From: Pilatotrama ljubarskyi
Lineage: Eukaryota > Basidiomycota > Agaricomycetes > Polyporales > Polyporaceae
Assembly (NCBI GenBank): GCA_022385805.1
Contig: MU277671.1
Location: 938,808 to 1,002,807, forward strand
Reading direction: 5' to 3'
DNA length: 64,000 nucleotides
Under the pieces are notes generated by a model. The model was not told where the DNA came from and made no database searches. It saw only the letters and a list, made by a program, of their open reading frames with translations. A program made the translations under genes and the position numbers. Shown here one piece after another: positions 49,423 to 60,691 of the stretch; positions within the stretch are counted from its first letter, which is position 1; every line of letters starts with the position of its first letter.

Positions 49423-51416
49423 ATGCCCTCTAGCACGAAACGCGCCGAACCAGCGGAGGATACTGCTCGCCCACCCAAGAGAGTTCGAGTGGATGACGCC
49501 GCCGAGCAGTCTGCTCCTGCCGCGGACGGCGGAGAACCGGTGAAAGAAGTGGCCACAGGAGCGGATGGTGAAATGTCAGAAGACGAGGAGGAGGAAGCTG
49601 CGTACGCTAGAAAGGCTCTGGTTGAGCCGCCGAAGGCTTCGGATTTGTACCTTGACACAGTATGTATAGTCTCAACTAGGAAACGAGCGTATCGTCTGAG
49701 AATGGCTGGTAGATCAACAGGGCTGTATTGGACTTCGATTTCGAGAAAGTATGCTCGGTCTCACTATCTAACATCAACATCTACGGCTGTCTCGTGTGCG
49801 GCAAGTACTTCCAGGGTCGCGGGCGTAACTCGTATGCCTTTGCTCATGCCATACACGACGACCACCACGTCTTCATCAATCTGGAGACCACAAAAGTGAG
49901 CCTATGAATCACGACATCCAGTGGGTTATCTGTCCTCACATGCTAACCTAGGTCTATGTTCTCCCTGATGGATATCCGGTCTCGGACCCGTCATTGGAAG
50001 ACATCGCCTTCGTTCTCTCCCCTGCTTTCACTCCGGCATCCATATCCACGTTGTCTACCGCTGCGCATCTACAGAGGCCGTCTTACGACCTCTCTAATAA
50101 ACCGTACATCCCGGGGTACGTTGGATTGAACAACATCAAGAGGAACGATTACATGAACGTCGTCATACACTCACTCCTTCATGTACCTCCACTCCGAGAT
50201 CACCTGCTGCTCTCCAACTATCGGGGGAAGGAGCCCGAGCTGCTCAAGCGCTTTGCCGGCCTTGCGAAGAAGCTCTGGAACCCGAGATTGTTCAAGAGCC
50301 AAGTCAGCCCTCACGAATTCTTGCAAGAAGTCAATCGAGCCAGCGCGGGAAAATTCAGCTTGGAGAAGCAGGGCGACCCTGTCGAATTCCTTGGTTGGCT
50401 GCTCAATCATCTTCACAAGGATATGGGCGGCACCAAGAAAAAGAATTCCAGTATGTCCGCTTCTAACACCTTGGAGCGCCCTCTCTGACGGACTTCTTCT
50501 CAGGTGTCATCTTCCGGACTTTCCAAGGCGAAGTCCGCATGGAGACGCAGCAAATTCTCGTACGACCAGATACTGGAACGAATGAAAAGCCACGCTTCGA
50601 CATCGATCGCGGTCAGTCCCGCACATCTCGTGGTGAATGTATCAGGATTCTCACATTCACTGACAGAGATCAAGTCGACCGTATCACCGTTCCTTTTCCT
50701 CGCCGTCGATCTACCACCTCCACCATTGTTCCAGGACTCGGTGGAGAAGAACATCATCCCGCAAGTCAGCATCCAATCCGTTTTGGCAAAGTACGACGGT
50801 CAGAAAACACAGGTATGTCGGTCAAGTTGACGGGTTTTGACGGGCATCCCCTGACGTTCTGCATAGGAATCTGCAGGACACCTACGCCGCTTCAAGTGCC
50901 AGCGGTTGCCACCTTACATCATCTTACATTTCAAGCGCTTCACGAAGAACCAGTTCGTCGAGGAGAAGAATCCCACAATTGTCAACTTTCCCCTACGGGG
51001 CCTCGATTTCAGAGAATGTATGCATCTCGACTTTTTTTCCAGCGGAGCTGGTCATGAAATCCCTTGTCCCTTCTAGATCTAGACGCCCCGGCATCGCACC
51101 CCCCTGCTGTGTACGACCTGATCGCGAACGTCACACATGAGTCAGCGGCCGGCACTACCCACGACAAGGAAAGCACTGTTTGGAAGGTTCACCTTCGAGC
51201 CGGTGCAGGCGGTGGGGAGAACGAGAGATGGTTCCAGATTCAGGACCTCATAGTTGAGGAGATCCGGAAGGAGATGATAGTGCTGGGCGAAACAATTTTA
51301 CAGGTACGTCTTCGCTCAGGGCTCCCCTCGTGCGAAGTCGTTCGTTCTTAATCTCCGTGTTATCGGTGCAGATTTGGGAACGAAGGTCCGAGACTTCATC
51401 TCCGGTGAATGCTTGA
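49423..51416 (+). CDS. SAD1: U4/U6.U5 tri-snRNP-associated protein Sad1/USP39
   Basis: Spliceosomal member of the ubiquitin-protease fold family without protease activity. The N-terminus is acidic and disordered (MPSSTKRAEPAEDTARPPKR). A zf-UBP zinc finger follows (CSVSLSNINIYGCLVCGKYF, GRGRNSYAFAHAIHDDHHVF). The UCH fold begins PGYVGLNNIKRNDYMNVVIH, where the catalytic cysteine position of true proteases (usually NTCYMN) is NDYMN, so the enzyme is dead, as known for Sad1. Later parts are VSPHEFLQEVNRAS, DPVEFLGWLLNHLH, YIILHFKRFTKNQFVEEKN and STVWKVHLRAG; the last exon is IWERRSETSSPVNA with stop at 51414-51416. Multiple short introns. Confidence 0.92.
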
Positions 51417-52248
51417 CAAGGCGTCGTAGGAGGGTGACCCAGATGTAGTACGAACATGTACCTATACAGGACGCTTCGACGAATGCGTTACTCAGAACCT
51501 ACAGGCCAAAAGGGCTGGCCAACTGGCATTTGCCACGTTCAGCACCTGATACGGTAGCTCATCTCTCCGATGAAGCCTTGACAGTAGCGTTGGGTTTTCC
51601 GGCAGTGGCGGTCGGGCTTCGATCACCTTGACTCGTCGTGTCTACCAGCCCGGAGCGCGCTGCAGTCGGAGACGCTGCGGGTGAAGGCACGTCATCGCTC
51701 GTCGCCCTGTGGAAGCGCCGTTTCAAGTTGAGCGTGCTGTGTCGCCGAACGGTGGAACGGAAGAAAGAGAGGACTTACATGGTATTGTTTTGGTCAAACA
51801 ATGGCTTGAATATGTAGATGCCCGACAATACGCCTGTGCGATACCGAACGGACTAGATCAGCCTCGGAGATCATAACCCCTTCCAGTTGCTGATATCATT
51901 TTACCTGTGACACCTGCCACGATGAAAGGCACCGCTCGTCGTGACATTCCTCAGATCTCTGGCGTCGTAGTCTATCTCAGCGCTGCAGATGCGTGGACGC
52001 GCCGACATTCGAACTACGTACGCGTCCGCCCTTTAAATTACGTAACGTAACCAGGAACACAAGCGCCGTTGGAAAAGGTCTAGTTGCCGACCACAATTAA
52101 TCCGTCGGGCAATACCGTCTGTTTCCTGCCTGAGACGGCAAGTGACGGTCTCATTTATGGAACAGTAAACACAAGACGTTATGGCAGTGGGAGCCACCTG
52201 GGTGAACTCTACTATGATCAAACCGCCGCTTCTGTCGGAGCAGGCCCA
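51417..52248. other. Interval between SAD1 and first small dsRBD gene
   Basis: 830 bp without a recognised gene; 3' flank of SAD1 on the left, and 3' flank of the dsRBD gene (minus strand) on the right. Confidence 0.4.
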
Positions 52249-52644
52249 CTACTCGGACAGCAGCCCGAGTCTGACAAGGGTCTGCCTAGCTGCTTCCTCC
52301 TTCGCAGCTGACTTCTGCTTCGAGGTCGCAGTACCCATGACCTCATCATTTACTAGAATATGAGCATAAGCCAGGTTACAGGCGGTGTAGGCGAAAGAAC
52401 GGTCTCACGGATGCAAGAAGCTGTCCACTGCATGTTATTACCAGCTCCAGCAGGAACCTCAGTCCAGCGTAGGGCGGCAAGCTGGCCCTGCTTCTGCAAG
52501 TCTGTTCGACGCAAGCGACGTCAGCATGTGTCTTGGAAGCGGCTCTGATGTACTCGCAATTGTTCAGGTCGACGACGTAGCCTGCAGCTGAAGGTGAGTG
52601 TGTGAAGGCAATGTTCGACAGGAGGTCCGCAACGTACGGGGCAT
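52249..52644 (-). CDS. Miniature dsRNA-binding-domain protein A
   Basis: A 75-aa protein that is essentially one double-stranded-RNA-binding domain. Exons: 52644-52638 (7 nt), 52581-52558, 52501-52409 and 52352-52249 (228 nt). Landmarks in order: VVDLNNYLQKQGQ (helix 1), AALRWTEV (strand 1), NNMQWTASCI (strand 2), LNDEVMGTATSKQ (strand 3 and loop) and SAAKEEAARQTLVRLG (helix 2), with stop at 52249-52251. Loop 4 keeps basic residues (SKQKSAAK), so RNA binding is plausible. All three introns are phase 1. The second intron starts with GC (GCGAGT); this keeps NNY intact exactly where the neighbouring gene B has a GT intron. There is no catalytic domain. Partner and role are unknown; small dsRBD proteins can regulate RNA silencing or editing, but this is only a family-level inference. 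Confidence 0.78.
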
Positions 52645-54612
52645 TGGGGAAGAAGAGGCTGATTCTTTCTGTAGGTAGAGTGGGGCTCTCGATGGACTTC
52701 TCGAGTTGATGAAATGCCTGGCCCTCCCTCCGCTATTTTATACGTTGTGTCTCCGTTTCCGTGTGCATGGTCCGATTGTTCGAAGGCAACGGCGCGCCGG
52801 TCAGGGCATGAACCGTTGTCTCTATCTGAAACACCCCGACACATATGCAGGACGCACCCGGCTTACGTTCCTAGGTAGCGGCGAGACTACAACGTGTCGT
52901 CATAAGCGGATGTCACCGAAATCCGACATTGCGGATCTCGAAAGGACGAATCTCCCTTTAGCACATCAATCTGGACATAGAGGCGAGGGACTTCACCAAT
53001 CTGGTATAACATCCACTGGACCATTTCTCAATGCCTGTCGAGTCGTGATGGTCATCCCGCAGAAAATTGGCCACCACTCGACAGCGGTGAATGACATGAC
53101 CCCGCTGAAACTATTGGAAGACAATCGATGCAGGTCCTACCTGGTCAGCCATCAATGATCATGCAACTAAGCAGCAACAGAGTATCGAAAAAATACTCAA
53201 CAGTGTAAGCCCAACTCCGGCTCCGTGCTGAGACGTCGCCGATGATTGAGTTTGGTTTATATCACGGGCTGTTGTTTGCCACACTGGCCGTGACAGGTTA
53301 TGATGTCGTAGCTGCGCCTGCATCGACCTACTCAATAAAGCATCTTGTAAGAGGGGCGTACCACAGCTCATTGCGGTTCACTTTGGGTCTTTTTGGGACC
53401 AGATGAATTGCCAATGAATGGACGCCGCGGTATCAACTTCGAACAGTCGTATTGTACCCCGGCATGCTTCATGTCAGGATAGAATTATACTGACCATGTT
53501 CAGGTATAGAGCATAACCTCCCCCATGATAAGGTGCGTGGCAACTCTTCGCCGAAAGACCTGAGGGAAATAGAGCGTGAAACTCATCAGACGATCCAACA
53601 CGAGATCGGACATTACAGCATACCTAGAGCTCATTCGGTTTATGCGCCAGTGGCCGTCTATCTAGATTCGTAGCCTGACGCTGTGGCATAAAGACCACGC
53701 TACGGCATGTGCATGGCGTCATCAGGGTAGCAAGGCAGCCAGATGATCGTGGGGCAGCCTCCAGGTACGCTGCTGCAGTCTTCAAAAAGGAAGGGAAGGC
53801 GAGGTACATTTCACTGGCATGCCCGTACCTGGACGCCGCACCTAATCGCATAGTCAGTAGTACCGCGGAGGGTGCGTGAGAATGCAATGAACGAGCAGTG
53901 CGAAGGCACAAGAGAGAAAGAATATCGTGCGTTGATCCGTGGCACTGAGAACATGAACTTCTCTCGACTCGGAGACCCTCCCGAACAGCCGATATCGCGC
54001 ATCGCAGTAGGGCGCGAGACACAAAATAAGTGCAGCCCGACTTCGCACGGAGGCTTATGGTAGTGAAAAGCGCCGTGCGTGAGTACGCGATGCGCTGCAC
54101 TACGTGCAGTATAAGCGCATGAGACTTGCAGGATCACGGACCTGGCGTTCTCGGATGGCACATTCCCATTGCAGAAATGAACGTCTTGAGCAACCGGCGG
54201 GACGGACAACGAGGCCGAAGACATGAGGCCAGCACCGGCAGTAGCACCGCATGAAACGTAAGAGGGAATTATGCCTGTCTGTTTTGTACATCTGCACGGC
54301 GCTGGGGGTTCACCGGGGCATTTCGCAAGCGGTGAGTATGCGCATGACGGTTTCAAGGCAGGCCGCACCAATCGCGCTCAGGCACAGCGTATTAAGCGCT
54401 CAGGCGCCTAACCGGCGGTCGGTCTTTGTGCACCCACAGCTACATACACACGATATCGAGACACATGACGCTAAATCTAGGAACCCGTAACGCTACACAG
54501 AGGCAAAAGAAGTCCGATGAATGGGGTGGACGCAATGTGCGAGACAGTTCTAGCGGTAGAATAATGCAGATGAGATGGGCTCAGCTTGTCCCCCGCTCGG
54601 AATCCGGCGTGC
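52645..54612. other. Interval between dsRBD genes A and B
   Basis: 1.97 kb. It includes the promoter of gene A (minus strand). I looked for further dsRBD exons (NNY, GP-x-x-A-P-x-W, DG, Ala-spaced helix 2) on both strands and found none. A minus open frame at 53811-54371 has no recognisable domain. Confidence 0.4.
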
Positions 54613-55068
54613 TCAAGTCGCGGCCTCGGGACTCGTGGCGGCCTTCGTGGTGTCTGCAACGACGGGTTGACTCTCTCTGGCAATCAGGATAGCCAGAGCT
54701 TCAGTCGCAGCAACGTCTTGTGCGGCGGCCCTCCGGGAGCCTGTCCCGGTGGCCAGTATTTCGCCGTCTACTGCTTTGAGTGGTTAGCTTGCCTCACATG
54801 CATACGCGGGGAAAGACGCTCGAGGCGCACTTTTGCAGCGACAGGTCCATTGCGGGGCGTGACGAGGTCCAGACACCTCATCTTCCCAGCTGAGCGAAGC
54901 TACCCGGCCTTTGCTTTGCAGGTCTACAGCCGTTGACGGTGAGCTAGGTTCGGGAGCGGTGAAGATTGCCCTACAGTTGTTCAACGCCACGGTGCCTTCT
55001 GAACGGGTCAACGTCAGACGAAAGGGTTCGCGACAGACCCCTGGAAACCACTCACCAACGGTAGACAT
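54613..55068 (-). CDS. Miniature dsRNA-binding-domain protein B
   Basis: A 94-aa protein, one dsRBD plus a short tail. Exons: 55068-55056 (13 nt), 54995-54975 (21 nt), 54923-54831 (93 nt, same length as in gene A) and 54770-54613 (285 nt in total). Landmarks: VALNNYLQSKGRV (helix 1), ASLSWEDEV (strand 1), SGPRHAPQWTCRCK (strand 2, with the GP-x-H-x-P signature), IDGEILATGTGS (strand 3) and RRAAAQDVAATEALAIL (helix 2). The tail ends VADTTKAATSPEAAT. The intron interrupting the NNY tyrosine and the intron before DG are phase 1, as in gene A. The basic patch before helix 2 is reduced to RR. The function is unknown; by family it should bind dsRNA or another dsRBD protein. Confidence 0.8.
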
Positions 55069-56370
55069 TCTGCTCTAGTGTGTTCTGAGGGACATTGGAA
55101 TGAGCCGACCATCGTTGCTATATACACCGTCCCCTGCTCCGCTCAGACCCTCGACCTGCCCTGTCGTCGTACGGCGAGTTGCGTTGCATCGAGGAAGGAA
55201 CTTCAGAATGGTAGGGCTAGGAGCTCATATGCTCTACTGAAGACCTTGCGCATCACAGGCAGTTCGATCGATGACCTAGCAACAAAGCAGGTACGAGGAG
55301 ATCACTGGCGACGGCGTACCGCTCCATGGGTCGTCTTCCGGAGGAGGGGGGAGGCGGAGGACTCGCGTTTGTTGCCAGATAAGGAGGCACGACCCTAGGG
55401 CACTCCCAATGCTTGAGGAGGGCGGCGGGCACATATGTCAACTAAGCTGTATGACGATGTATAGCTCCGTCTGAAGCTGAGCAGGTAAATTGCCTATGCG
55501 GAGTTATGTTCACTCACCAGCAGCAAGTGTGCATGAAGCCGTGAAGCAGCCGAGGCTTCGCGGAAACGTCTTCTCCGAAAGCGAGTCCGCTTGAACCTTG
55601 CTGCTTGTCGTCAGTTTCCTCGTGGCGTACCGGGGGTCTAGGCTGCAATCTTCATATGAATCTTCCGTGAGGCCCTCTTGACCACAAGGAGAATCCTTGC
55701 TCCAGCAAAATGAGATCGTGCAGCATCGTGCACGTCCTCGACAAGGTCGCATGTCGCCGATAGCGGAAGCCTGCGAGACATAACGGATGCATATCGGACG
55801 ATCCCGAAGTGCCAGAGATCCAGATTTGTGCAAAGAACGGTACCGGGGAAGTGCTCAGGACGGCAATGGTTCGTGGTCGTCGGTGACCGGTTGCGAAGTT
55901 GGGGCGCCGGGCTTCGGATATTAGCGCTGCTTGTAGCGCGGGGCGAGCCCAGCGCGGACCCATGTAGTGCAGCTCTCAAACCTCGTCACAGAGACTCCTA
56001 AGCCATCCACCAAGCATGGTAGAGCCAAGTCCTCAACAGCACAGGCGGTGTCCGAAGAACGGTCGGCATCGCATTAGCATCATAGAACATCGCATGACAG
56101 CATCTGCAGGCAATACACGGCGGGACAGCGAGGACAGCGCAGGGGTGGGGAGGCTATGGCAGCACAAGCACGAGACTCAGAGCATACAGATCCAGTCAGG
56201 CAAGAGACGGCGAGGCACTATAGGCTACATCATGTGGGGAATTCGAGCGAATTAGTATTATTGCAGAGTGTAGTGCGGGCAGCATCGTTATGCCGATTAT
56301 CTGCATGGTGCGTGTGAGGACGTGGAGGCAGTCTTCCAAGCTATGCTCGGTGCTCTCACCGTGGGGCCAA
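55069..56370. other. Interval between dsRBD genes B and C
   Basis: 1.3 kb, containing the promoter of gene B. On the minus strand at about 55560-55680 a frame reads SYEDCSLDPRYATRKLT, which vaguely resembles the strand 1-2 part of gene B (SWEDEVSGPRHAPQWT). No flanking exons complete it, so it may be a decayed copy or chance. Confidence 0.35.
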
Positions 56371-56713
56371 TCATCGTACACGCATGTTCCAGAGAGCACG
56401 CAGTGCCTGCTCAGCGGCGATTTCACGCGCGGCGCCGAGGTTTGTAGCGGATCCTCGGCCGTGTTCTACGCCATCCACTGTTATGTGCATCTGAGCATCC
56501 CTCTACATGCCGAAGGTGGGGGACACTCACAGAAGACACTGGCAGTCCATGTAGGCGCATTTCGAGGGCCTGTCTGGACCTGGGTCCACTGAACGGAGGG
56601 GCCCAAATTGTTGACTTGAACATAGTTGTTGAACTCCATGCGCCAGTCTGTTGGTCCCAATCAGTTGAGATAGTGCCGCTGATGACTGGAACGGAGCACT
56701 CACGCTCAGACAT
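56371..56713 (-). CDS. Miniature dsRNA-binding-domain protein C
   Basis: A 77-aa protein, one dsRBD. Exons: 56713-56704 (10 nt), 56647-56531 and 56477-56371 (234 nt). Landmarks: WRMEFNNYVQVNNLG (helix 1), SVQWTQVQTGPRNAPTWT (strands 1-2, with the GP-x-x-A-P-x-W signature), ASVFLDGVEHGRGSAT (strand 3), AAREIAAEQALRALW (helix 2), ending NMRVR. It lacks the intron inside NNY that A and B have, so two of their exons are fused here; the first and last introns are at the same places and in phase 1. The usual KKxAK patch before helix 2 is NLGAA, so RNA affinity may be weaker and protein-protein contact is an alternative role (inference). Donors GTGAGT and acceptors AACAG are strong. Confidence 0.82.
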
Positions 56714-59406
56714 GAGGATAATCAAGTATTTAGCGGAGGATAGATACTGGCACTAGGATCCGAGTCGCTAGGGAATCTGGAGGAGACAGGGAAGCCGAAT
56801 GGAGGGTCTGCTGGGACATCGCACATTCTCTTATACGATGCCCCAGCTTGTTCGAGCGACAACGGCCAGTCCGCATATCTGCGGTATCGGACACTAACGC
56901 GCTGACGGGATGCCGAGAATGTCATTGTGTCAAGCGGAGAGCGGGTTGGAACAGCTACAGGAGAGACGGAGACGGAAAGCAGTGTCAGCCGTGTATCCGG
57001 AAACAAATATGCAGCATTGATTGGAATAGGGAGACTGCTGCGCGCAGAGCAACCACAGTCATGCGGGATGTATGCGCGGGTCAGGTCCCTTGAACCACCC
57101 GACCTGAGTCACGGCAGCCCATCGAGAACATGTGTGTGGTAGGGCGGGTGATTGGCAGAAGTTGAGCTCGGGCGAAGTGTGACGAGACGATTTGCCGCTC
57201 CTGGTGACGCTTTCAATCAGCATATCGGGATCCACGGGGTTATGAACTCTTCCTACCGTAGGAGTGCTTCCCCTTACGCTCAAGAGATCCGGTATTGCCA
57301 CATGAATATGCCGTCGACGTACGGATCACACTCATTGTGGTTTTCGTCCACCCTGATATGCTTGTGGGAGCTGAGAGATACGTGAGCGACGGGCGTTTGT
57401 GACCTTCAGCGGCAAGGCGGGCATCGGAGGGCAAAGGCTTACGGAAAACGGATGCATCGTGTCGGATCAGCCACATCCTTGGACGCGCAAGTATCTGGGC
57501 AGTCCGCAAGGCGTCGAAGTGAACCAGGGTTCGCAACGTATTGGCTTGTGAAGATGGACTCTGCGGAAAGCCGGACGTGCTACGTATCAAAGCTCAAATA
57601 GACGGTACCGACGGCAGCCGCTCGTCGGGGGTGCATAGTGATAACATATGTTTGGTGTGTGCGGGTTCGTTTCCAGTACCGCCCGGCTGTGCGCAATCGA
57701 TGGTGGCCTACTGGTTTGGGTAAGTAGGAATGAATAAAGTGTCGAATCGCACCGCTTTTCGCAAGCGCTAATGGGTGAGGGAGACCTTCTTGACGGTGGG
57801 CGAAGCCGGTGTCTTAGCGGGTTGCCGTAATGCCTCGATAGTATGCGGCTGGGACCACTTGGCGATCCGGATGGGGTACCCTTTAGCAGGTCACTTCAGG
57901 CATGATGACCGGATGAGATATGCCTGTGGCCAACCTTTTGTTCCCTGGCGGCGACGCTACAAGTTGAGCCAGGCTCCGAATTCAAGTGCCATGCACATTG
58001 AATATTGAGCCGCCGAGCGGTGCGGCTCGCTTCGAGAAGACACGTCGAGGTCCAAGTACGGACTCTCGCCTAGGATCAGCGAGGCGCGATCAGAGCAGCA
58101 GCGCATATCGGCCTCTGCGCAAAAGAGAGACGGCAGTTGTGTGGATTTGCAGGAGCCCGTGCTCCGTACCATCGATTGCTATGTGACGATGTCGGCGCTC
58201 CGACCGCGGAGGCCCCTACGATAGAAAGCGATGCGTGGCTTCTTGCAGCAGGTGGCATCCAAGCCTACCGTTGGACGACCAGGCCAGATGTTTGAGCGTG
58301 GAACAGACTTACGAGTCGACTCATCGCACCCCCAGGACGCTCAGAGGGCAATCTAACCATCTCAGCATCGGAGACACCGCCGCGAGCACCAAGCGAAAGC
58401 TCGAAGAAGAATCCACCCCGTTCATATGAATCGATAGGCCCAAGGATGCGTCCGCAGGGGGTTACATCCGGATGTGCTTCATGCGAACTCTAGAGTGCTC
58501 ACGCCCAAGATTGAGTCATTGGACGTTCGGATCTTACAAGCCAAATGCGCCCTTCTCCTTGGATCTCAGATGTGCAAAGATTGTGGAGCTTCCATCCACT
58601 GCATTTGCAAGCATCCAAGTCCGACTGACTCACCACACCGGCGGATGTGGAGGGCTTCTCCACGGTAGGGTATATCGCGCTCTGCGAGTCGGAGCGATAT
58701 CACTGGGTGCGCAAAACGGGAACAATTTAGCTGACCTGCGGATCGCTAGTCCTTGGGCGTTGCAGCAGCTGGGCGCAGCGGTGGCATACGCCGCAGTGCT
58801 GGAGATGGAATAGGGATGGACCGCGTGCTGGTGGACGGGGAGCCAAAGGACGCAGGAAGTGCCGGCTATAATGTCGGCGTTGAGTATGGGCTTGCCGTAT
58901 ACGGATTGCAGGGGTCGCCGATTGGAGGGCCGCGGCCGGCCGGGTCGGACGGCGCCCGGTGATGGCGGGGACGGGGACGGAGCGGAGGACGAACCGAGAG
59001 AGGAAGGATCCGACGGTGAGCAGACTCAGCAGCGTCCATCAACGCTCCCACTGCCAGTTGACAGTCGCCATCGTCCGGCCTCTCCCTCCCTGCCACCTCC
59101 CCCCATCTTCATTCCCTCTGCTCGTCGCCCCCGACCGTGTCGCCACCGTCCGACACGTTCTCCAGCTGCACAGACTCGTGTTCAACCCGAATCAGCCTTT
59201 GTTGGTTCCCACGAAAGTTTCCATCAGCGTTCGACTCTCCCTACCCCTTCTCTTCAGCTTCCTAAGCTCGCACGGTGCGTTTCTCTTCACTGCCTTCATA
59301 CCGCACAGGTCTTACACATCTTCTCTGGTCAAAGACGCCTCGTAGGCCTCGTACTCCGATACTCGACCACTGAAGTCCCCCCCCCCCCCCCGTTGCTACC
59401 AAAACC
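56714..59406. other. Interval upstream of G-beta gene
   Basis: 2.7 kb with the promoters of dsRBD gene C (minus) and of the G-beta gene (plus). On the minus strand at about 58100-58180, after a CACATAG acceptor, a frame reads IDGTEHGLLQIHTTAVSLL and stops soon after; it resembles the last exon of gene C (LDGVEHG) but helix 2 is poor and no upstream exons fit. From about 59040 the plus strand is C/T-rich, ending in a run of 15 C (59377-59391), 15 bp before the G-beta ATG. Confidence 0.4.
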
Positions 59407-60691
59407 ATGTCCCAATCCCCCCAAGGTGATATCCAGGAGCGCATTGCTGCCGCCAGGCGCGAGGCAGAGAGCCTCAAGGAGAAGATTCGCGCGAAGAGGG
59501 AGTCATCTGCGGATACCAGCTGTGAGTGACAGCCACGGGATTCCTATGCGCTGGTTCGCCAACTGATAAGTTCGGCCACCATAGTGCGGGCAATGGCAGC
59601 CGAAGTTCCCGCCTTGCCTCGAGTCGTCATGCGCCCTCGTCGTGCCCTTCGGGGGCATCTTGCCAAGATATACGCGATGCACTGGGCTACTGACCGGCGG
59701 CACCTCGTATCTGCGTCGCAGGATGGAAAGCTCATCGTCTGGGACGCATACACTACCAACAAGGTCCACGCCATCCCGTTGCGGTCCAGCTGGGTTATGA
59801 CCTGCGCTTACTCACCCTCCGGGAACTACGTCGCTTGCGGTGGTCTTGATAACATTTGCTCTATCTACAACCTTCACTCCAAAGAAGGCAACAACGTGAA
59901 GGGTGCCCGCGAGCTTAGCGCACACTCCGGATATCTCAGTTGCTGCCGCTTCCTCAACGACCGCCAGATCGTGACCAGCTCCGGCGACATGACTTGCATG
60001 CTCTGGGATATCGAGGCAGGCGTTCGTGTGGTCGAGTTCAGCGACCACACTGGTGATGTGATGAGGTAAGCTCTCGCGCTCGCCGGAGCTCTCGTCTGTA
60101 GTGACATCGGCCTGACCGCATCTGCTAGTCTGTCGCTCGGCCCCAACCAGAACGTGTTTGTATCTGGCGCGTGCGACGCAACGGCGAAGTTGTGGGATAT
60201 CCGGAGCGGCAAGGCGACCCAGACATTTACCGGCCACGAGTCCGACATCAATGCAGTTAGGTACGCAAACCACTTCACATGATTGCATATCGTCGGGGTT
60301 GACGCGTTCTCAGCTTCTTCCCCAACGGAGATGCTTTCGCTACTGGCTCCGATGACGCGTCGTGCCGACTCTTCGATATCAGGGCCGACAGGGAGCTGAA
60401 TGCCTTTACCCACGACAACATCCTCTGCGGTATCACCTCTGTGGCGTTCTCAATCTCGGGTCGAATCCTGTTCGGCGGTTACGACGATTGGACCTGCAAT
60501 GTTTGGGACACGCTCAAGGGCGAGCGAGTTGGAGTCCTTACTGGCCACGAGAACCGGGTCAGCTGTCTCGGGGTCAGCTCTGACGGCATGGCACTGTGCA
60601 CCGGAAGTTGGGACAGCACGCTCAGGGTTCGTCTGCACTCGGCATCCTTGGAGTTTTATTCGCTCACCTCCCTGCACAGGTCTGGGCGTGA
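59407..60691 (+). CDS. gpb1: Heterotrimeric G-protein beta subunit
   Basis: WD40 propeller of a heterotrimeric G protein, acting at the plasma membrane in nutrient or pheromone signalling. 350 aa from exons 59407-59521, 59585-60065, 60129-60260, 60314-60626 and 60680-60691 (1053 nt), the usual size. The N-terminal helix ([20 protein letters not shown]) pairs with G-gamma. Seven WD repeats follow, for example [75 protein letters not shown] and [20 protein letters not shown]; it ends [14 protein letters not shown]. The last intron starts GTTCGT, and the last exon has only four codons including stop. The protein is a canonical G-beta, not a Gib2/RACK1 type. Confidence 0.95.

What the first reader, a model, noticed from the sequence alone, without database searches (positions are those of the whole stretch)
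52249..56713. Hidden cluster of three miniature dsRNA-binding-domain genes
Three genes on the same strand, within 4.5 kb, each encode little more than one dsRBD (75, 94 and 77 aa). They are invisible as open frames because exons are as short as 7-24 nt. Each model was reached independently from splice signals, sums to a multiple of three, and yields the same order: NNYxQ, W, GP-x-x-A-P-x-W or equivalent, [L/I][D/N][G/D], Ala-spaced helix 2. No enzyme domain is attached, so they may act as competitors, regulators or sensors of dsRNA (RNA silencing, virus control, editing) or as dimerising adaptors. The nucleotide sequences are divergent, so this is an old duplication that has stayed together.
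Basis: partly seen in the sequence, partly recalled or inferred. Interest (0 to 1): 0.88.

Follow-up and report, generated by a model that had tools for sequence, protein, structure and literature searches.

The report
Trio of one-domain dsRNA-binding mini genes
A bracket fungus carries three neighbouring, real but tiny genes that each encode a single double-stranded-RNA-binding fold and nothing else; relatives occur in many mushroom-forming fungi, and one of the three seems to have lost most of the usual RNA-gripping residues, so the set may be a small RNA-handling module of unknown function.

Summary
Three minus-strand genes (A 52644-52249, B 55068-54613, C 56713-56371) each encode one dsRBD: 75, 95 and 77 aa, Pfam dsrm E 1.5e-8, 7.6e-10, 1.2e-10. 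A splice-aware profile scan built without this species' proteins found only these places in the 64 kb and reproduced the junctions, including a GC-AG intron in A; 28 shuffles gave nothing. The organism is Pilatotrama ljubarskyi (Polyporales). The genes are not hidden from databases: A and C are deposited with identical proteins, B with intron 2 left in. Predicted folds of A and C are canonical. New here: the types differ in RNA contacts. A keeps two lysines but not the loop His; B keeps most; C lost the loop His in 16 of 17 rows and is non-basic at the KK positions in 14 and 15 of 17. Most likely they are accessory dsRNA-handling proteins, perhaps of RNAi, with C acting mainly by protein contact. 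Function is inferred, not shown.

The parts
52249..52644 (-). Gene A, 75 aa, one dsRBD. Exons 52644-52638, 52581-52558, 52501-52409, 52352-52249 (stop included)
   Evidence: dsrm 1.5e-8; identical to P0007 BV20DRAFT_273138; scan 206.5 bits with the type A profile
52502..52557 (-). Intron 2 of gene A, GC-AG, phase 1, splits the Tyr codon of NNY
   Evidence: the deposited protein P0007 implies the same junction
52582..52637 (-). Intron 1 of gene A, GT-AG, phase 1
52353..52408 (-). Intron 3 of gene A, GT-AG, phase 1
54613..55068 (-). Gene B, 95 aa, one dsRBD plus a short C-terminal tail. Exons 55068-55056, 54998-54975, 54923-54831, 54770-54613 (stop included)
   Evidence: dsrm 7.6e-10; P0019 BV20DRAFT_960636 is the same gene with intron 2 translated; scan 180.0 bits with the type B profile, from exon 2 on
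54999..55055 (-). Intron 1 of gene B, GT-AG, phase 1
   Evidence: same junction implied by P0019
54924..54974 (-). Intron 2 of gene B, 51 nt, phase 1, same place as intron 2 of A; in frame if retained, and retained in the deposited model
54771..54830 (-). Intron 3 of gene B, GT-AG, phase 1
56371..56713 (-). Gene C, 77 aa, one dsRBD. Exons 56713-56704, 56647-56531, 56477-56371 (stop included); lacks the NNY intron
   Evidence: dsrm 1.2e-10; identical to P0001 BV20DRAFT_1048603; scan 210.9 bits with the type C profile
56648..56703 (-). Intron 1 of gene C, GT-AG, phase 1
56478..56530 (-). Intron 2 of gene C, GT-AG, phase 1, same place as intron 3 of A and B
49952..50488 (+). Flanking frame with a ubiquitin carboxyl-terminal hydrolase domain (reads like USP39; that name is recalled)
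   Evidence: Pfam UCH 8e-16
59530..60069 (+). Flanking frame with a heterotrimeric G-protein beta subunit domain
   Evidence: Pfam WD40_Gbeta 1.2e-86

Best explanation
Three adjacent, separately started and stopped genes each make a stand-alone dsRBD. They belong to a family of one-domain dsRBD proteins of mushroom-forming fungi, and the trio is an old array kept together in Polyporaceae (supported). B-type proteins keep most canonical RNA contacts and should bind dsRNA; A keeps two helix-2 lysines but not the loop histidine and may bind with changed preference; C has kept the fold and a conserved helix 2 but lost most of both RNA-contact motifs, so it probably works by protein contact (inferred from residues). 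The likeliest job is that of a non-enzymatic helper of the dsRNA-processing machinery: B, and perhaps A, present dsRNA to Dicer or RNase III, and C modulates them by pairing with a dsRBD or with Dicer (inferred, not shown).
For: Gene models and scan. Pfam. Folds alpha-beta-beta-beta-alpha, mean pLDDT 85.9 (C) and 86.3 (A); nearest solved structures include ADAR2, PKR, HYL1, Staufen, TRBP and mitoribosomal dsRBDs. RNA contacts (Lys and Arg counted as basic): position of PKR K60 basic in A 10 of 10, B 25 of 30, C 3 of 17; of K61 in A 0 of 10, B 8 of 30, C 2 of 17; of K64 in A 10 of 10, B 28 of 30, C 17 of 17; loop His in A 0 of 10 (2 gaps), B 18 of 30, C 1 of 17. Meaning of the motifs KKxAK and GPxH: PMC11309768 (passages seen), PMC5852647 (passages seen). 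Constraint: C against its paralogue on C29 dN 0.20, dS 1.93. RNAi genes present: Dicer_dimer and RNase III matches together on C6, C8 and C57, Piwi matches on four contigs, RdRP matches on six. No Pfam dsrm in the C-terminal frames of the C6 and C8 Dicers (C57 not examined). Precedent: RbdB of Dictyostelium, one dsRBD and no other defined domain, needed for miRNA processing with Dicer B (PMC4894637: abstract, outline and one passage seen).
Against: No link to RNAi is shown: neighbours are a ubiquitin hydrolase and a G-beta gene, and expression, binding and partners are untested. Motif loss need not end binding: C keeps GP in 17 of 17 and a basic residue at the K64 position in 17 of 17, and TRBP dsRBD1 also departs from GPxH (passage). 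B of this very species has Gln at the K64 position where 27 of 30 rows have Arg, which weakens it as the binder. The tails of the C6 and C8 Dicers look by eye like divergent dsRBDs that Pfam misses, and their spliced ends were not modelled. Six-frame exon search misses spliced domains (it missed A, B and C), so counts of dsRBDs in the genome are lower bounds.
Confidence: 0.45

Rival explanations
1. Competitors or buffers of dsRNA: the proteins coat dsRNA and keep Dicer or RNase III off it, as viral suppressors with a dsRBD do, and so damp silencing.
For: A dsRBD without an enzyme could act so. An entry named RNA-binding protein E3 is among the sequence matches of the family profile (E 4.1e-7; that it is a viral suppressor is recalled). 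A dsRNA-binding protein of an insect DNA virus suppresses RNAi (PMC4231766: title and start of abstract in a listing, and passages).
Against: C has lost most of the contact motifs, which a competitor needs; a family kept in many species looks unlike a viral capture.
Confidence: 0.2
2. A role outside RNA silencing: binding of structured cellular RNA in ribosome or mitoribosome assembly, mRNA localisation or development.
For: Mitoribosomal dsRBDs are among the best fold matches of both models and Staufen of the A model; the dsRBD fold alone does not tell the pathway.
Against: Extra dispersed copies are unusual for a ribosome part (inference); no targeting signal was tested.
Confidence: 0.27
3. 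One gene with three dsRBDs (TRBP- or R2D2-like) that was cut into three by the reader.
For: All on one strand, all introns phase 1; a two-dsRBD protein of the family is deposited for Meripilus (P0103).
Against: Each domain has its own start and its own stop at or shortly after its end; starts such as MPRYVVDLNN and MSEHWRM are kept in separate deposited proteins of other species; joining would need introns of more than 1 kb against 51-60 nt here. P0103 reads by eye like two neighbouring genes fused by annotation.
Confidence: 0.02
4. Decaying duplicates without function.
For: A partial match on C65 with stops in the frame suggests that copies can decay.
Against: Junctions, frames and cluster kept across species; dN well under dS for C against its paralogue.
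Confidence: 0.03

Closest known systems
Pfam dsrm PF00035, type A dsRBD (for example PKR dsRBD1, TRBP dsRBD2)
   Same: Length, alpha-beta-beta-beta-alpha order (A and C modelled), AAxxAL helix 2, sequence match above cut-off
   Different: The domain makes up nearly the whole protein; KKxAK and GPxH are only partly kept, least in C
RbdA and RbdB of Dictyostelium (single dsRBD)
   Same: One dsRBD and no other defined domain (passage); RbdB works with a Dicer (abstract)
   Different: RbdB seems much longer than 75-95 aa (a section heading names a deletion 504-612); no sequence comparison was made; no cluster of three is described in what I saw
Dicer partners TRBP, Loquacious, R2D2, RDE-4
   Same: dsRBD proteins without enzyme domain (recalled in part)
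   Different: More than one dsRBD in a chain (TRBP and Loquacious three, PMC2287173 passage; the others recalled); here one per chain
Deposited 'hypothetical protein' and 'DRBM domain-containing protein' entries of mushroom-forming fungi
   Same: Same family; A, B (mis-spliced) and C of this window are among them
   Different: The names give no function; the trio, the shared intron layout and the differing RNA contacts were worked out here

Membership tests
Pfam dsrm (PF00035) | Score above the curated cut-off of 23 bits | tested here: met
   A 35.5, B 39.7, C 42.3 bits
Pfam dsrm (PF00035) | alpha-beta-beta-beta-alpha fold | tested here: met
   Predicted models of C and A; B was not modelled
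Canonical dsRNA-binding (type A) dsRBD | KKxAK at the start of helix 2 | tested here: not met
   No window protein has the full motif: A Lys-Ser-x-x-Lys, B Arg-Ala-x-x-Gln, C Leu-Gly-x-x-Arg at the K60, K61, K64 positions; partly kept in A and in other B-type rows
Canonical dsRNA-binding (type A) dsRBD | GPxH in the beta1-beta2 loop | tested here: inconclusive
   Window B meets it (GPRH); window A (GAGN) and C (GPRN) do not
Canonical dsRNA-binding (type A) dsRBD | Binds dsRNA | not testable with these tools
   Needs a binding assay
Dicer partner proteins | Two or more dsRBDs in one protein | tested here: not met
   One dsrm stretch in each
Dicer partner proteins | Binds Dicer | not testable with these tools
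   Needs co-purification
RNase III or Dicer | RNase III domain in the same protein | tested here: not met
   Only dsRBD families match in Pfam at E up to 1
One-domain dsRBD family of mushroom-forming fungi | Shared phase-1 introns at the same places | tested here: met
   A, B, C and the C29 and C17 paralogues share the first and last intron; A and B also the NNY intron

The most novel reading that the evidence does not exclude
The trio is a co-inherited module of dsRBD micro-proteins with split roles: B grips dsRNA, A grips it by another subset of contacts, and C is a binding-deficient partner that pairs with them or with Dicer and sets how much dsRNA enters silencing, a way of tuning RNAi that the searches did not turn up for mushroom-forming fungi.
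Probability: 0.18. Interest if true: 0.75.

Novelty: new variant of a known kind. Interest (0 to 1): 0.5.

Why it matters
This fungus has several Dicer, Argonaute and RdRP loci, but dsRBD helper proteins such as those of animals and plants did not come up for mushroom-forming fungi in the listings (open-access papers only, judged by title and start of abstract). A conserved cluster of one-domain dsRBD genes with unequal RNA contacts is a concrete, easily tested candidate, and it shows that automatic annotation can mis-splice such genes.

Tried and rejected
Searched the window for further copies: none. Ten of the frames listed were given to Pfam at E up to 0.01: five lying in the spacers (114 to 188 aa), one of 122 aa antisense over C, one of 128 aa upstream of C and one of 250 aa further on had no match; the other two are the flanking genes. 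So no other known domain was found in the cluster, but small spliced genes would be missed. Looked for inverted repeats that might give dsRNA in 51900-57200: three pairs of 18-24 nt, 71-84 percent complementary, not pursued. Rfam on the window: no match at gathering score. DSRM_2 in the genome: no match at E up to 1. A capture from a virus or a transposon was considered; it was not tested, and nothing seen points to it. Papers: searches returned none; others (15 of 679 listed) returned listings in which no title or abstract start is about this family; one search gave papers on dsRBD contacts. Gene order beyond contig length and locus tag, and dN/dS between orthologues, could not be read, because no DNA of related fungi was available to me.
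Full report
What is there. The minus strand of the window holds three genes at the stated coordinates. Splicing by consensus signals gives 75, 95 and 77 aa. Exon lengths are 7/24/93/104 (A), 13/24/93/158 (B) and 10/117/107 nt (C); the middle exon of C equals the two middle exons of A and B together. The eight introns are 51-60 nt and phase 1. Intron 2 of A begins with GC, the others with GT; all end in AG. Pfam dsrm matches each above its cut-off.

Is it more than chance. I wrote a splice-aware profile scan and built its profiles from 62 homologues of other species, leaving out the rows of this species (the alignment itself had been made with them). Over both strands of 64 kb, with the pooled and four type profiles, every hit of 28 bits or more lies inside these three genes. 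With the pooled profile the scores are 165.7 (C), 147.3 (B) and 133.1 (A), with the same junctions as the consensus reading; for B this path starts in exon 2, so the first exon of B rests on the consensus reading and on the deposited model. Twelve shuffles with the pooled profile and sixteen with the type profiles, one strand each, gave no hit of 28 bits or more.

What organism and what is known. One search returned C at 100 percent as BV20DRAFT_1048603 of Pilatotrama ljubarskyi, a polypore (lineage). A is identical to BV20DRAFT_273138, and B is BV20DRAFT_960636 with the 51-nt intron 2 translated. The contig length 1108752 given with them is that of G000:C2, where the window lies. So the genes have entries, named hypothetical. 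The deposited A protein uses the GC donor, but may itself rest on prediction. Deposited A-type proteins of three other species (P0066, P0076, P0097) differ at that same junction.

The family. One search listed 102 proteins (918 candidates) and one search listed 88 (5984 candidates); they make P0001 to P0153. By my own knowledge of the genera, the named sources are Agaricomycetes (Polyporales, Agaricales, Boletales, Gloeophyllales, Thelephorales, Russulales, Corticiales and others); only Pilatotrama was looked up. Unnamed metagenome entries were not placed; one, P0151, carries RNase III domains. Listed lengths run from 43 to 249 aa and lie mostly between 70 and 120. The tree has 97 rows (five fragments and the mis-spliced P0019 left out; identical P0001 and P0007 stand as winC and winA). 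It separates A and B from C and a fourth type D with 100/99 support; with 80 columns many forks are unresolved. The extra NNY intron of A and B, absent in C and in the C29 and C17 paralogues, agrees with this split.

Old cluster. From the contig lengths I counted by hand the species with at least two of types A, B, C: Pilatotrama ljubarskyi, Trametes cingulata, T. polyzona, Cubamyces lactineus (all three types each), T. meyenii, T. maxima, T. elegans, Cubamyces sp. BRFM 1775, Dichomitus squalens, Earliella scabrosa, Lenzites betulinus, Polyporus arcularius and Lentinus tigrinus. In 11 of 13 the lengths are equal, taken as one contig; Polyporus arcularius has unequal lengths but consecutive tags, and Lentinus tigrinus has unequal lengths. 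Tags are consecutive for all three types, with B in the middle, in T. polyzona (1152808-10) and C. lactineus (788159-61), and for two types in T. cingulata, T. meyenii and P. arcularius. As a control, type D shares no contig length with A, B or C in 0 of 13 species that have both (P. ljubarskyi, T. maxima, C. lactineus, T. polyzona, E. scabrosa, L. betulinus, T. punicea, C. menziesii, Ganoderma leucocontextum, Epithele typhae, T. versicolor, Sparassis latifolia, Laetiporus sulphureus), that is, the number of species in which it shares one is 0 of 13; T. versicolor comes from two assemblies. The length shown is the longest contig of each protein cluster, so equal length is strong but indirect evidence. 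Types of later hits were assigned by best BLASTP match. Extra C-type copies on other contigs exist in several of these species, for example P0003, P0004, P0029, P0061 and P0130.

Copies in this genome. Besides the trio: C29:293776-293435 (P0003, type C), C17:156225-155880 (P0056, type D), a pair on C60 near 165013-164774 and 163768-163615 (C-like, first exons not modelled), and a partial match with stops on C65. The best dsrm hit of the genome, C1:970070, lies in a frame that reads by eye like an RNase III; only dsrm matched it in Pfam, and the RNase III search did not list C1. C against P0003 has dN 0.20 and dS 1.93 by Nei-Gojobori (the second method returned nothing), which suggests constraint; dS near 2 is close to saturation.

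Fold and RNA contacts. AlphaFold models of C (65 rows) and A (54 rows) give helix, three strands, helix with mean pLDDT 85.9 and 86.3; B was not modelled. Foldseek and profile searches return dsRBDs of ADAR2, PKR, HYL1, Staufen, TRBP, Drosha and mitoribosomal proteins. The canonical contacts are a Glu in helix 1, GPxH in the loop, and KKxAK in helix 2 (PMC11309768, passages); the helix-1 position, as I align it, is Asn or Asp in the grouped rows. Columns were matched to PKR through the printed alignment; the PKR residue numbers are recalled. Counts, Lys and Arg taken as basic: K60 position A 10/10, B 25/30, C 3/17, D 0/21; K61 position A 0/10, B 8/30, C 2/17, D 0/21; K64 position A 10/10, B 28/30, C 17/17, D 20/21; loop His A 0/10 (2 gaps), B 18/30, C 1/17, D 21/21. 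The grouped rows are 78 of 97 tree rows; B is a grade, not a clade. Three rows of the C clade with broken or partial models (P0075, P0096, P0098) were left out; 16 further rows fall outside the four groups, two of which (P0073, P0078) were counted apart. Window B has Arg, Ala and Gln at K60, K61 and K64 and keeps GPRH; window A has Lys, Ser, Lys and GAGN; window C has Leu, Gly, Arg and GPRN. Thus C is the least likely RNA binder, though its fold and helix 2 are well kept. Against this, C keeps GP and the K64-position charge in 17 of 17 rows, and a dsRBD can depart from GPxH and still be studied as an RNA binder (TRBP dsRBD1, passage).

Setting. The genome has Dicer_dimer and RNase III matches together on C6, C8 and C57 (further RNase III matches on C50 and C2), Piwi matches on C1, C3, C19 and C99, and RdRP matches on C4, C9, C13, C23, C36 and C42. 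The C-terminal frames of the C6 and C8 Dicers give no dsrm match behind the RNase III domains (the weak match in C8, E 0.13, lies in the Dicer_dimer domain). Their spliced ends were not modelled, both tails look by eye like worn dsRBDs, and C57 was not examined. Separate dsRBD proteins might serve such Dicers, but there is no direct evidence. The neighbours, a ubiquitin hydrolase and a G-beta gene, say nothing about function.

Verdict. The thing is an old, conserved cluster of three members of a widespread family without a known function. The new points are the shared intron layout, the cluster's conservation, and the unequal wear of RNA contacts. Function is inferred; the RNAi-helper reading is the best single guess, at somewhat under one half.

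Noticed in passing
54924-54974: Intron 2 of B is 51 nt and open in frame; the deposited model keeps it, and the Lentinus tigrinus B protein P0142 has a similar insert after NN. Either a shared annotation error or an in-frame retained form that would break helix 1.
   Followed up: partly
52502-52557: GC-AG intron in A. Deposited proteins of three other species (P0066, P0076, P0097) differ at exactly this junction, two of them with NNC, as expected if a GC donor is missed; their DNA was not seen.
   Followed up: partly
L043 (C60:160000-168000): A second pair of C-like one-domain dsRBD genes about 1 kb apart on C60; first exons not modelled.
   Followed up: partly
L048 (C65:172000-177913): Partial C-like dsRBD match resembling the C60 gene, with stops in the frame: perhaps a relic.
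   Followed up: no
P0103 (Meripilus lineatus, 219 aa): Two dsRBDs of this family in one deposited protein; reads like two neighbouring genes fused by annotation, or a true two-domain protein.
   Followed up: partly
L044 and L045 (C6 and C8 Dicers): Tails behind the second RNase III domain look by eye like degenerate dsRBDs that Pfam does not recognise.
   Followed up: partly
52742 and 55124: TATA-like sequences about 98 and 56 nt upstream of the starts of A and B (read); none noticed for C.
   Followed up: no
52645-54612 and 55069-56370: Spacers of about 2.0 and 1.3 kb between the mini genes, without any Pfam match in the five frames tested there.
   Followed up: partly
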